From the NCBI GenBank assembly GCA_013376995.1, contig JACAAZ010000001.1, forward strand, positions 173,586-227,188: DNA of 53,603 bases, written 5' to 3'. How positions within the stretch are numbered: position 1 is the first letter of the stretch; each line of letters begins with the position of its first letter. Made by a program: the position numbers and the translations under genes. This document shows positions 14,294-17,070 of the stretch, piece by piece. The notes beneath the pieces were generated by a model that did not search any database, was not told where the DNA came from, and saw only the letters and a list, made by a program, of their open reading frames with translations. Origin of the DNA: Bacteroidota bacterium. GTDB taxonomy: Bacteria; Bacteroidota; Bacteroidia; Bacteroidales; UBA4417.

Positions 14294-15691
14294 TTAAGGA
14301 TGTGAGGTGGCATTGCTCCTCACATTTTTTTTATAGATCTCACCCCTGTGCTCAAAGTTCTTGAACATATCAAAGCTGGAAGCAGCAGGTGAAAGCAGGC
14401 ATATCTTTCCTTTAACAGTGACCCTTTTAGCTATTTCTACAACTTCTTCATAATTGCCTGCTTCATAAATTGCTTGCCCGGCCTGAATTCCTGAAGTGAG
14501 CAATTCAGATTTCATTCGTTTGCCTGCTTCGCCGATGAAAATAAGGTTGTCTATTCCTGAATGAACCAGGAAAGGATAAAGAATATGATAATCAATACCC
14601 CGGTCATATCCGCCAAGGATAAGTGTGCCAACCTTTTGAAGCGTTTTTACCGCTTCAATGGTTGCCTCAGGGATAGTGGCAATTGAATCATTGAAATACT
14701 GGATACCATCGTATTCTCCGACAAACTCAATTCTGTGCTCCAGCCCTTTAAATGAGGAAATTGCTTTTCGCATCTTCTCAGGTGAAACCCCGGCAATATG
14801 GCAGGCTGTTACAGCAGCCATGATATTCGAAAAATTGTGCTCCCCCGGCAGGCTTAATGAAGGTGACACATCGAAAAGCTTTTTAATGGAACCTTCTCTT
14901 TTCATCCAGACTGCATTCTCAGTCCTGAAAATCCCGTCTGAAGAAAGGGGATGAAGTGAGTAAGGCAATAAAATATGCTGGAGTGGTTCACTTTCCTCTA
15001 CCAGTTTATCCAGAAGTTTGTTATCAGAACTGTAAATAAAAAAATCGTTCTTATCCTGGAACTTCCCAATATTCATCTTTGCTTGCTGGTAGGCCTCATA
15101 ATTCACATAATGGTCCAGGTGCTCCTGGAAAATATTGAGCAGCAATGCAATATGAGGCGATTTACTAAGGAATTCCAGTTGGTGGGAGGAAAGCTCCATC
15201 ACGATCAGGGTAGCCTCTGTAATCTCAGGTATGCCTTCAAAAGGGGGAAGACCAATATTGCCTAGCAAGATCGAGTGAAAACCTGAACAGGAAAGTATGT
15301 GATGAATAAGGCTTGATGTAGTGCTTTTGCCTTTTGTACCGGTTACGCCAATAACCTGTTTTCCGTATTCCTGCAGGAAAAGGCTGGTCTGGGAGGTAAT
15401 CCGGCTCTTGTCAAACCCTTCAGGAAGTACATGGAAAGATATCCCCGGGGCTTTAATTACAAGATCATAATTCAACAATTGCTTCATACAACCGGAACCA
15501 AGATGAAGGATTGCCTTTGGATCTGAAGATAGATCAGGATCTTTCGATATCTCCTCATTATTGTCAATAATGCCAAGAAGTTTTTCAGGGAACAAGTTTC
15601 GGATCAGGTTGTAGCTGGAACGTCCTTCACGCCCGTACCCAAGAATGGCAACTCTCTTCCCTTCGGTCAGCCGGTTTATTAATTCCTTCAT
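14294..15691 (-). CDS. murD: MurD-family UDP-MurNAc-L-Ala--glutamate ligase (candidate MurD2, L-Glu-specific)
   Basis: ATP-dependent Mur ligase adding the second amino acid of the stem peptide. The N-terminal Rossmann-like domain has ILGYGREG. The central ATPase domain has GVTGTKGKSTTS (115-126), GNIGLP (144-149), ELSSHQLE, and the NIFQEHLDHY segment. A C-terminal ligase domain has GGYDRGID and LLSPAASSFDMF. The 465-aa length is normal. The start ATG overlaps the stop of the upstream gene (ATGA), so the two are translationally coupled. Because that partner looks like MurL, this ligase may use L-Glu, as Xanthomonas MurD2 does. The substrate is inference; a standard D-Glu MurD cannot be excluded from sequence alone. 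Confidence 0.9.
   Translation of the reverse strand: MKELINRLTEGKRVAILGYGREGRSSYNLIRNLFPEKLLGIIDNNEEISKDPDLSSDPKAILHLGSGCMKQLLNYDLVIKAPGISFHVLPEGFDKSRITSQTSLFLQEYGKQVIGVTGTKGKSTTSSLIHHILSCSGFHSILLGNIGLPPFEGIPEITEATLIVMELSSHQLEFLSKSPHIALLLNIFQEHLDHYVNYEAYQQAKMNIGKFQDKNDFFIYSSDNKLLDKLVEESEPLQHILLPYSLHPLSSDGIFRTENAVWMKREGSIKKLFDVSPSLSLPGEHNFSNIMAAVTACHIAGVSPEKMRKAISSFKGLEHRIEFVGEYDGIQYFNDSIATIPEATIEAVKTLQKVGTLILGGYDRGIDYHILYPFLVHSGIDNLIFIGEAGKRMKSELLTSGIQAGQAIYEAGNYEEVVEIAKRVTVKGKICLLSPAASSFDMFKNFEHRGEIYKKNVRSNATSHP
14300..14332 (+). terminator. THX terminator, inside the 3' end of murD
   Basis: Stem ATGTGAGG (14300-14307) and CCTCACAT (14318-14325) with a 10-base loop is followed by a T8 run to 14332. 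It serves the + strand THX gene while coding, on the other strand, for the last codons of murD. Confidence 0.85.
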
Positions 15692-17070
15692 GAAATTGCA
15701 GACTTGATGATATCCAGGAAGCGCTGTCCTAAGAAATGCTGTCCATTGATTTCATGCAGCAATTGGTAGGACTGAACTGGATGATATTGGTTGAAATTGG
15801 AAGTATTGCTATAGTAGTCGATCAGTAAAGGCCATTTTTCTTTTGCATGTTCCTGGATGAACATTTGAAGTGCAGCATTTACTTCTTCAATAGTGCCGAC
15901 ACATTCAAAGGGCTTGACAGCATCCATGCCGGTAAGTTCTTTAAGATATCCTATCATTCCTGCATCTTCATAAAGGTTCTTGCCAAAAATCTGGATCAGT
16001 TCATTCAGGGGGATAAAGGGGCTCAGGATAATCCAGGCAAAAAGGCATTTTGGACAATGCCCGCACCATACATCAGTCTTGGATCCTACGTTGCAGCTTT
16101 TAAAAACCGGGTAGTACCTTACCTGCCTGGAGAATAGCATGGCAATCTGCAGTTCGCTCAGGGGCCGAAGGAAACTAAAATAGTTGAAGTCAGCTGAGAT
16201 GTATTTTGCAACATATTCCCTGAAATCTTTTTCAAAAGAGTAGGATTTGGAATACTGATGATTTACTTCAGTCCCGGCAACCGTTGGCTCATTGGCAGAT
16301 GACTCGTTTGACAATGCGATATGCCTGCAACCATAGATCGATGCAACCAGGAGGGTATAAAATGCCAGCAGGGCTGAAAATGGCGTATGGCCATTGAGAA
16401 AGCCTTCACTGTTCAGTTTGAGAAGCAACGGATCGATGCTGCGATTGACCTCTGCGATCTGAAGATTGGAAAATCCGGCCTTATTGCAAGTCTCAACACT
16501 GGCTCCCCTCGGATTAAGGATGAATGGACGAACTTCATAATCATTTCTAAGCAGTTCCAGTGTGACAACTGAATCCTTGCCACCGCCTATGGGTACCAAT
16601 ATGCAGTCAGAAAGTTCAATACCTGAACTCTCATGATTTTTGCCTTCAGATTCAATTGTCAGGAAATCCTCCATCGAAACCTTAATGCCATTTGTAAAAA
16701 AGAACTCACCCAGGCCTTGATAATATACATTTTTCCACCACTTTACCTGGCCTTTGTCAAGGCTGACACCTTTTACTTTGATCACCTCAGGACAAGCAGC
16801 TTTCCAATAGCTTATCAATTCTATCATCCCGATGTGAAACAGCAGGTTCTGAAATAAGGATGACGTTATGAATTTTTCATCGAGTTTCTTTTTCAGGTTT
16901 GATTTAACTGGGAAATGGAATTTCGGGCGGAAAATATGGGTGTCAGAAAGATTGAAATGATATTCAACTAGGATACCATCGACCTGGACTTTGCTGTAAA
17001 ACCCTTCATACGACAAAAATGGAAATTTTTCCCGGAATGAGTTGAATTTCAGCTGACCAGGGGTTTGCAT
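15688..17070 (-). CDS. murL: Probable UDP-MurNAc-L-Ala-L-Glu epimerase (MurL-like PP-loop protein)
   Basis: 460 aa, no signal peptide. Residues 160-167 read PIGGGKDS, a PP-loop (ATP pyrophosphatase) motif. Further on are SNESSANEP (254-262) and a cysteine cluster C326, C336, C339, C342 (WCGHCPKC). This pattern, together with immediate coupling to a MurD-type ligase, fits MurL. That Xanthomonas enzyme uses ATP to epimerise the L-Glu of UDP-MurNAc-L-Ala-L-Glu. A TACTTTTG element (17136-17129, minus strand) lies 59 bases upstream. Assignment rests on recalled family features and gene order, not on alignment. A different PP-loop enzyme acting on the MurD product is the main alternative. Confidence 0.75.
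   Translation of the reverse strand: MQTPGQLKFNSFREKFPFLSYEGFYSKVQVDGILVEYHFNLSDTHIFRPKFHFPVKSNLKKKLDEKFITSSLFQNLLFHIGMIELISYWKAACPEVIKVKGVSLDKGQVKWWKNVYYQGLGEFFFTNGIKVSMEDFLTIESEGKNHESSGIELSDCILVPIGGGKDSVVTLELLRNDYEVRPFILNPRGASVETCNKAGFSNLQIAEVNRSIDPLLLKLNSEGFLNGHTPFSALLAFYTLLVASIYGCRHIALSNESSANEPTVAGTEVNHQYSKSYSFEKDFREYVAKYISADFNYFSFLRPLSELQIAMLFSRQVRYYPVFKSCNVGSKTDVWCGHCPKCLFAWIILSPFIPLNELIQIFGKNLYEDAGMIGYLKELTGMDAVKPFECVGTIEEVNAALQMFIQEHAKEKWPLLIDYYSNTSNFNQYHPVQSYQLLHEINGQHFLGQRFLDIIKSAIS

What the first reader, a model, noticed from the sequence alone, without database searches (positions are those of the whole stretch)
14294..17070. MurD coupled to a MurL-like PP-loop protein: alternative route for D-Glu into peptidoglycan in a Bacteroidota-type genome
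Seen: the two genes overlap by ATGA. The 460-aa upstream protein has PIGGGKDS (PP-loop), SNESSANEP and WCGHCPKC. Known: in Xanthomonas, MurD2 adds L-Glu to UDP-MurNAc-L-Ala and MurL then epimerises it using ATP, bypassing glutamate racemase. Inference: this organism may do the same, with the ligase preferring L-Glu.
Basis: partly seen in the sequence, partly recalled or inferred. Interest (0 to 1): 0.8.

Follow-up and report, generated by a model that had tools for sequence, protein, structure and literature searches.

The report
Cell-wall D-glutamate made without racemase
The two overlapping genes look like the enzymes that add ordinary L-glutamate to a cell-wall building block and then flip it to D-glutamate; related bacteria seem to use this route in place of the usual racemase, and many of them have trimmed the older ligase down to one conserved domain.

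Summary
Observation confirmed. Window 14294-15691(-) encodes a Mur ligase, 15688-17070(-) a MurL-type PP-loop protein, overlapping by ATGA.

MurL: NCBI's Xanthomonadales MurL model matches at E 8e-80, below its order-level cut-off; 37% identity over 324 aa to Xanthomonas sacchari MurL. Ligase: same E/I/R at three L/D-Glu positions as X. sacchari MurD2, against D/K/K in the genome's own dcw MurD, and groups with it (100/100). No glutamate racemase was found in the genome. In 393 genomes of the order MurL occurs in 124 and MurI over cut-off in 241; none appears to have both. Some lineages fuse MurL and MurD2.

Unexpected: canonical MurD persists. Of 123 MurL-positive genomes, 70 keep it whole, 47 keep only its C-terminal ~182 residues in the mraY-ftsW slot, 6 show neither; 29 of 29 MurL-negative controls keep it whole. 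If truncation is irreversible, stubs arose at least six times. They are under purifying selection (dN/dS 0.05-0.21, 7 measurable pairs) but have lost conservation at catalytic positions, suggesting a non-catalytic role.

Module: known kind, new host group (Bacteroidales). The stub is the surprise. No biochemistry was possible.

The parts
15688..17070 (-). [quoted passage not shown]
   Evidence: NF041275 E 8.2e-80, 268 bits, cut-off 700; 37% identity to X. sacchari MurL over 324 aa; AF2 model pLDDT 95.1
14294..15691 (-). [quoted passage not shown]
   Evidence: TIGR01087 324 bits; E190/I337/R364 = E. coli positions 182/319/348, as in X. sacchari MurD2; clade with X. sacchari MurD2 100/100
15688..15691 (-). 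ATGA overlap: start of murD2 over stop of murL
16570..16593 (-). PP-loop PIGGGKDS in MurL (residues 160-167)
   Evidence: GGGKDS invariant in 60 of 60 aligned MurL and in X. sacchari
16285..16311 (-). SNESSANEP motif in MurL (residues 254-262)
   Evidence: S254, N255, E256, S258 invariant in 60 of 60 and kept in X. sacchari
16045..16068 (-). WCGHCPKC motif in MurL (residues 335-342)
   Evidence: W335, C336, C339, K341, C342 invariant in 60 of 60 and kept in X. sacchari and two Pseudonocardia homologues
15320..15349 (-). Mur ligase ATP-binding loop GVTGTKGKST in MurD2
   Evidence: K115 (E. coli numbering) kept in 54 of 54
15107..15127 (-). QEHLDHY: E190, the D182E position that helps set L- versus D-Glu
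   Evidence: E in 53 of 54 MurL-linked ligases, D in 31 of 31 dcw MurD
14675..14692 (-). NDSIAT: I337, the K319 position
   Evidence: I in 54 of 54 MurL-linked ligases, K in 31 of 31 dcw MurD
14597..14614 (-). GGYDRG: R364, the K348R position
   Evidence: R in 54 of 54 MurL-linked ligases, K in 31 of 31 dcw MurD

Best explanation
The pair is the MurD2-MurL module. [quoted passage not shown] Step 2 (inferred from X. oryzae enzymology, PMC8788868): MurL binds ATP in a PP-loop site, activates the alpha-carboxylate of the new L-Glu residue as an adenylate, which makes the alpha proton removable; [quoted passage not shown] This supplies the D-Glu of the wall, so glutamate racemase is dispensable and is gone. 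The canonical dcw MurD stays intact in the window's genome but is free to lose its catalytic part; in many relatives it has, leaving a C-terminal-domain protein that is still selected for a non-catalytic role near MraY/FtsW (role inferred).
For: MurL family match; same gene order, also overlapping, in X. sacchari; 75 of 80 named loci have MurL followed by (69) or fused with (6) MurD2. Specificity residues E/I/R in the window as in X. sacchari, D/K/K in its own dcw MurD; E197D/R358K in X. oryzae MurD2 switches it to D-Glu and K319T lets E. coli MurD accept L-Glu (PMC8788868). MurD2 clade with X. sacchari 100/100; both other placements of X. sacchari and E. coli rejected, p 0.0003 or less. No MurI in the genome; its two PF01063 proteins are IlvE and a PabC-like protein, not D-amino-acid transaminase. 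MurL 124, MurI over cut-off 241, no genome read as having both, of 393 (Fisher 3e-75). In 46 of 46 stub genomes searched no canonical MurD N-terminal/central part was found, and in 42 of these 46 MurD2 is present with a full-length frame.
Against: No activity was measured. The score is far below NF041275's curated cut-off of 700. MurD2 is only 28% identical to X. sacchari MurD2, no closer than to E. coli MurD (29%); a quick tree with a MurC outgroup left its place open, and both trees carry long-branch warnings. The genome keeps a full-length canonical MurD with the catalytic residues checked intact, unexplained if no free D-Glu is made. It is 96.66% complete, so murI could sit in a gap of this one assembly, though hardly in 124. 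One stub genome, G069, shows no MurD2 at all. MurI/MurL counts are not phylogenetically independent: the dcw-MurD tree needs only 2 changes of state. The structure search found no significant match.
Confidence: 0.92

Rival explanations
1. The dcw MurD with D-Glu from salvage or an unrecognised racemase makes the wall, and the window pair is a back-up or serves another polymer.
For: Full-length dcw MurD in the window's genome and in 70 of 123 MurL-positive genomes, with catalytic residues intact in the 48 checked except one N271D. D-Glu racemase activity of a bifunctional DapF is reported in another bacterium (PMC5885031, title and abstract start in the listing only).
Against: 47 MurL-positive genomes have only a MurD stub; in the 46 searched no catalytic canonical MurD part was found, and no MurL-positive genome has a TIGR00067 match better than E 6e-22. 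In those the pair is the only visible route.
Confidence: 0.05
2. The 460-aa protein is another PP-loop enzyme (for example a tRNA- or base-modifying one) that merely sits beside a MurD.
For: PP-loop and a Cys-rich WCxxCxKC motif; the best, weak, Foldseek hit is the tRNA thiouridylase MnmA.
Against: NF041275 E 8e-80 against E 0.084 for the next NCBIfam model; 56 of 78 family-invariant residues kept in X. sacchari MurL; fusions with MurD2; mutual exclusion with MurI.
Confidence: 0.02
3. The MurD stub is a decaying pseudogene or an mRNA/operon spacer before ftsW, with no protein function.
For: Stubs evolve fast (end branches up to 2.65, one 5.91) and have lost conservation at catalytic positions.
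Against: ORFs of about 182 codons in 47 genomes; dN/dS 0.05-0.21 in the 7 of 23 listed within-family pairs that could be measured, 16 being saturated; D317, W341, V363, G370, P411, F429 kept in 98-100% of 41 stubs.
Confidence: 0.15

Closest known systems
MurD2 (XOO_1320) and MurL (XOO_1319) of Xanthomonas oryzae, and the X. sacchari murL-murD pair
   Same: X. sacchari pair: homologous proteins, same order and overlapping (20 bases), same E/I/R specificity residues, PP-loop and Cys motifs. X. oryzae is reported to lack MurI (PMC8788868)
   Different: Bacteroidales, not among the genera named in PMC8788868 or in the passages seen of PMC5808125; 28-37% identity; canonical dcw MurD kept or reduced to a stub (not compared in Xanthomonas); MurL-MurD2 fusions in some lineages
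Canonical MurD of the dcw cluster (E. coli MurD)
   Same: Mur ligase family and ATP/Mg residues
   Different: D182E, K319I, K348R; encoded outside the dcw cluster, paired with MurL
MurI glutamate racemase / D-amino-acid transaminase
   Same: Provides the D-Glu of peptidoglycan
   Different: Not found here; MurL would act on the bound nucleotide-sugar dipeptide and use ATP
PP-loop ATP pyrophosphatases (MnmA, argininosuccinate synthase, LarE)
   Same: GGGKDS loop; they appear at ranks 1, 9 and 25 of a weak Foldseek list, with Rossmann-type and other proteins between. That they adenylate substrates is recalled
   Different: No solved structure matches significantly (best E 0.01, TM 0.16); the reaction is epimerisation

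Membership tests
MurL epimerase (broad family) | Sequence homology to known MurL with conserved PP-loop and Cys motifs | tested here: met
   NF041275 E 8.2e-80; 37% identity over 324 aa to X. sacchari MurL, 56 of 78 family-invariant residues shared
MurL epimerase (broad family) | Gene paired with a MurD2-type ligase | tested here: met
   ATGA overlap in window; 75 of 80 named loci adjacent or fused
MurL epimerase (broad family) | Host lacks MurI / D-amino-acid transaminase | tested here: met
   in 393 genomes of the order no MurL-positive one has a TIGR00067 match better than E 6e-22
[quoted passage not shown]
   needs enzyme assay
NCBIfam NF041275 MurL_Xanthmoales equivalog (order-level model) | Score over curated cut-off of 700 bits | tested here: not met
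   268.5 bits; 0 of 393 genomes of the order reach it. By its name the model is for one order; the window protein is not filed under it
MurD2 L-Glu ligase | Glu and Arg at the positions of X. oryzae E197 and R358 (E. coli D182, K348) | tested here: met
   window E190, R364; 53 and 54 of 54 MurL-linked ligases; 0 of 31 dcw MurD
MurD2 L-Glu ligase | Common ancestry with Xanthomonas MurD2 | tested here: met
   100/100 clade; both alternative placements rejected, p 0.0003 or less. Long-branch warnings; a quick tree with MurC outgroup was not decisive
MurD2 L-Glu ligase | Ligates L-Glu in preference to D-Glu | not testable with these tools
   needs enzyme assay
Canonical MurD | D182, K319, K348 of the D-Glu enzyme | tested here: not met
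   window ligase has E, I, R
PP-loop ATP pyrophosphatase fold | Fold similarity to solved PP-loop enzymes | tested here: inconclusive
   best Foldseek hit MnmA E 0.01, probability 0.98, TM 0.16; no hit at E<=0.001

The most novel reading that the evidence does not exclude
The C-terminal domain of canonical MurD has a second, non-catalytic job in wall synthesis or division. Bacteroidales that hand D-Glu incorporation to MurD2-MurL expose it: freed from catalysis, dcw MurD is cut at least six separate times to a ~182-residue protein between mraY and ftsW that keeps a set of invariant residues and sheds its ATP- and glutamate-binding ones. A natural separation-of-function experiment on a textbook enzyme.
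Probability: 0.5. Interest if true: 0.82.

Novelty: new variant of a known kind. Interest (0 to 1): 0.66.

Why it matters
D-Glu in peptidoglycan is usually credited to MurI. Here nearly a third of the sampled genomes of one order (124 of 393) appear to do without it and to use an ATP-driven epimerase instead, so MurI annotation and MurI inhibitors would miss these bacteria, while MurL-MurD2 inhibitors could reach them. The repeatedly trimmed MurD gives a direct way to ask whether a Mur ligase domain has a role of its own next to MraY and FtsW.

Tried and rejected
Other D-Glu sources in the genome were looked for and not found: PF01177 0 matches, TIGR00067 0, PF01063 2 matches that classify as IlvE (432 bits) and as a PabC-like protein by a weak match (28.5 bits) and a PabB-like neighbour recognised by eye. 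PF01177 alone was misleading in relatives: 6 of 28 MurL-positive genomes of the first set of 60 have a match. Four of these six were in the TIGR00067 draw and gave E 3e-18, 5e-9, 4e-11 and none; G002 and G007 were not tested with it. I read such matches as other Asp/Glu-family racemases.

A split MurD (missing half encoded elsewhere) was tested and rejected: the canonical N-terminal and central part finds nothing closer than E 6e-29 in 46 stub genomes, against E 2e-96 or better in three intact ones. A single origin of the stubs was rejected.

Promoter and terminator scans round the pair gave no more than shuffles. A first quick tree did not settle MurD2 ancestry and was redone; the two tests are the same split, so the third placement was tested. 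In one search the 26-row comparison group mixed 18 MurL-negative and 8 MurL-positive genomes (separates them). Paper searches listed only two works on MurL/MurD2 and none that I recognised on a stand-alone MurD C-terminal domain; only listed rows were seen, of open PMC papers; the original X. oryzae research papers were not held or read.
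Full report
WHAT IS THERE. The finding's two ORFs are real: 465 aa at 14294-15691 and 460 aa at 15688-17070, both minus strand, sharing ATGA, with the 460-aa gene first in transcription. The downstream protein is a MurD-type ligase (TIGR01087, 324 bits, cut-off 212). The upstream protein has no Pfam family (best E 0.12) but matches NCBI's Xanthomonadales MurL model at E 8e-80, 268 bits, below that model's 700-bit cut-off, which none of 393 genomes of the order reaches. Of five other window proteins sent to Pfam, four look like housekeeping genes (formyltransferase, SpoU methylase, AlgH-like, RecQ-type helicase) and one had no match.

THE HOST. The window is G000:C1:173586-227188 of a 5.05-Mb, 43-contig genome, 96.66% complete. 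Three same-genus contigs (G006:C199, G008:C68, G007:C20) have the same lengths as records CAIJPI010000199, CAIWMA010000068 and JAIFMH010000004, titled uncultured Bacteroidales or Bacteroidetes. That the order is Bacteroidales is my inference from these and most other titles.

IS IT MURL? A local alignment with the annotated MurL of Xanthomonas sacchari gives 37% identity over 324 aa, E 3e-65. Of 78 residues invariant in 60 aligned Bacteroidales MurL proteins, 56 are kept in X. sacchari, including GGGKDS, SNExS, NHQxSK, SCN, WCxxCxKC and KPFxC. The AlphaFold2 model is confident (mean pLDDT 95.1, pTM 0.93). Foldseek against the PDB finds nothing at E<=0.001; the first hit is the PP-loop enzyme MnmA (E 0.01, probability 0.98), with argininosuccinate synthase at rank 9 and LarE at rank 25 among unrelated proteins. 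This is compatible with, but does not prove, an adenylating PP-loop enzyme. PMC8788868 (parts 1 and 2 of 3 read, the main text) reports ATP to AMP and proposes adenylation of the alpha-carboxylate, but knew no domain.

IS THE LIGASE MURD2? In X. oryzae MurD2, E197 and R358 (E. coli D182 and K348) set L- versus D-Glu; changing both to the E. coli residues switches the enzyme, and K319T makes E. coli MurD accept L-Glu (PMC8788868). In 54 MurL-linked ligases from the loci I fetched (those with BLAST over 250 bits; a few cut at the locus end) these positions read E in 53 (D in G049), R in 54 and I (for K319) in 54. In the dcw MurD of 16 MurL-positive and 15 MurL-negative genomes they read D, K and K in 31 of 31. 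The window ligase is E190/I337/R364; X. sacchari MurD2 is also E/I/R, and the window genome's own dcw MurD is D/K/K. K115, N138, E157, H183, K198, N268, N271, R302, D317 and T321, recalled as ATP, Mg or substrate contacts, are intact in 54 of 54. In a careful tree of 32 rows the Bacteroidales ligases and X. sacchari MurD2 form one clade, 100/100. Putting X. sacchari with the dcw MurDs (p 0.0003 and, as the same split from the other side, 0.0002) or with E. coli MurD (p 0.0003) is rejected. X. sacchari and E. coli are long branches, the program warns of this, and an earlier quick tree with a MurC outgroup was not decisive.

IS MURI MISSING? The genome has no PF01177 or TIGR00067 match. Its two PF01063 proteins are a branched-chain transaminase and a PabC-like protein. 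Across 393 genomes of the order, drawn evenly, MurL occurs in 124 (one, G067, only as a weak fragment at E 7.5e-5) and MurI over cut-off in 241. I compared the lists by hand: 28 of the 124 have a TIGR00067 match, the best at E 6e-22 (G373); single matches over the 146.65-bit cut-off lie at about E 1e-42 or better. The table does not print pass or fail per genome; four genomes must pass by joined pieces, and G023, G379, G225 and G369 fit best, but for G310 (5 matches) and G373 (3) this is a reading, not a printed result. On that reading none has both, and 28 have neither; some of these are incomplete, and one, G030, has no MurD over cut-off. Fisher p is 3e-75, but genomes are not independent: on a tree of 74 dcw MurDs the label needs 2 changes, 1 forced, so one or two swaps could explain it. 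In a draw of 395 genomes of the phylum, at least six of them of this order, a real MurL was found only in the window's genome; two others have E 1e-4 matches in frames of about 800 aa.

LINKAGE. NCBIfam finds MurL then MurD in the one fusion tested. In some genomes the pair is apart: MurL and MurD2 lie on different contigs in G016, G374, G086 and G346.

THE SECOND MURD. The window genome's dcw cluster holds a full-length canonical MurD (446 aa, 402 bits). In 123 MurL-positive genomes (124 less G067) scanned with a C-terminal-domain profile, it is full length in 70 (three of them, G027, G110 and G122, cut at the N-terminus by a contig end but reaching into the central domain), a short ORF in 47, and not found in 6; in 29 MurL-negative controls it is full length in 29 (47 of 117 against 0 of 29, Fisher 3e-6). 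The 47 lie in 20 of the order's family groups, 10 of which also hold full-length copies. In 45 of 47 stub loci mraY is found on one side and ftsW on the other; the other two (G374, G391) lack one of them, with the fetched stretch ending at a contig end. Of 41 stubs measured, 23 are exactly 182 aa and the range is 176-205; G391's 205 is a frame running off a contig, whose extra 23 residues do not look like MurD. Where an upstream ORF could be seen, most start 0-72 bases after it and three start 129-238 bases after it. Thirty of the 41 begin at the alignment column of a Met that exists inside the full-length protein (E. coli position 256; Met in 47 of 48 MurL-positive full-length copies).

IS THE STUB FUNCTIONAL? 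Within-family dN/dS is 0.054-0.214 in 7 of 23 listed pairs; the other 16 are saturated at silent sites. In 41 stubs, positions near ATP or glutamate are released: N268 in 15, N271 in 7, K319 in 23, T321 in 25, K348 in 9; others are kept more often (R302 in 32, S415 in 30). D317, W341 and V363 are kept in all 41 and A393, G370, P411 and F429 in 98%. On a careful tree of 51 C-terminal domains (25 stubs, chosen to avoid the longest branches) the stub state needs 10 changes, at least 6 forced by well-supported branches, and one clade of stubs is rejected (p 4e-137). The larger quick tree of 95 rows needs 11 and forces 3. Stub and full-length copies are sisters within one genus (G166/G333, 100/99). 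As a stub can hardly grow back, I read these as at least six truncations, unless dcw genes moved between lineages. The missing N-terminal and central part was not found elsewhere in any of 46 stub genomes searched (G064 was not in that search). In 42 of those 46 MurD2 has a full-length frame; in G073, G154 and G329 the frame is short (184, 283 and 242 aa), and in G069 no MurD2 was found, also not beside its MurL. So in most stub genomes MurD2 is the only complete MurD-type ligase seen, which is the strongest genetic argument that it serves the wall.

MECHANISM. Shown by sequence: both enzymes, their pairing, the specificity residues, the absence of MurI, the loss of the catalytic part of MurD in 47 genomes. 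Known from X. oryzae enzymology (PMC8788868): L-Glu ligation and ATP-to-AMP one-way epimerisation. Inferred: that the window pair does the same, that the PP-loop holds the ATP, and that the MurD C-terminal domain has a role of its own.

NOVELTY. The module is a known kind. The two papers found on it name Gammaproteobacteria, Alphaproteobacteria and actinobacteria (PMC8788868) and low-similarity orthologues in a fungus, cyanobacteria and an amoeba (PMC5808125, passages); the word Bacteroidetes occurs in neither. New here, as far as the listed results show for open PMC papers: order-scale replacement of MurI in Bacteroidales, MurL-MurD2 fusions, and the repeated reduction of canonical MurD to a conserved C-terminal domain.

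Noticed in passing
L098-L102, L252-L257, L259, L260, L301, L302 and other loci: Canonical dcw MurD reduced to a conserved C-terminal protein of about 182 aa in the mraY-ftsW slot, in 47 of 123 MurL-positive genomes.
   Followed up: yes
L093-L097; L138, L147, L172, L173, L181, L186: MurL and MurD2 encoded as one protein of about 880-940 aa (L094 and L147 appear to be the same contig).
   Followed up: partly
L295 3764-5164 and L296 3764-5173 (Pseudonocardia plasmids): MurL homologues of 28-32% identity annotated as hypothetical proteins, with no MurD gene listed in the roughly 4 kb on either side; they keep the Cys motif. Possibly another peptide epimerase.
   Followed up: partly
L294 (NZ_CP010410.1): The X. 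sacchari murL-murD pair lies on a 508-kb record called a plasmid, beside other housekeeping genes; it may be a chromosome piece or a chromid.
   Followed up: no
L144, L183, L184: MurL with about 5 kb downstream and no MurD2 next to it; where their MurD2 lies was not checked.
   Followed up: no
L305 (G069:C108): MurL-positive genome with a MurD stub and no MurD2 found in the assembly (92% complete).
   Followed up: partly
G035, G092, G143, G174, G195, G249: MurL-positive genomes in which neither full-length dcw MurD nor a stub was found: complete loss or assembly gaps.
   Followed up: no
G030: 98% complete genome of the same order with no MurL, no MurI match and no MurD over cut-off; may lack peptidoglycan synthesis.
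   Followed up: no
L005 1465-2832 (G000:C1, outside the window): A second MurC-like ligase (TIGR01082, 225 bits, below the 335 cut-off), perhaps a peptidoglycan-recycling ligase.
   Followed up: no
L164: A MurL locus of Bacteroidales type in a record titled uncultured Ruminococcaceae; probably a mislabelled or mixed bin.
   Followed up: no
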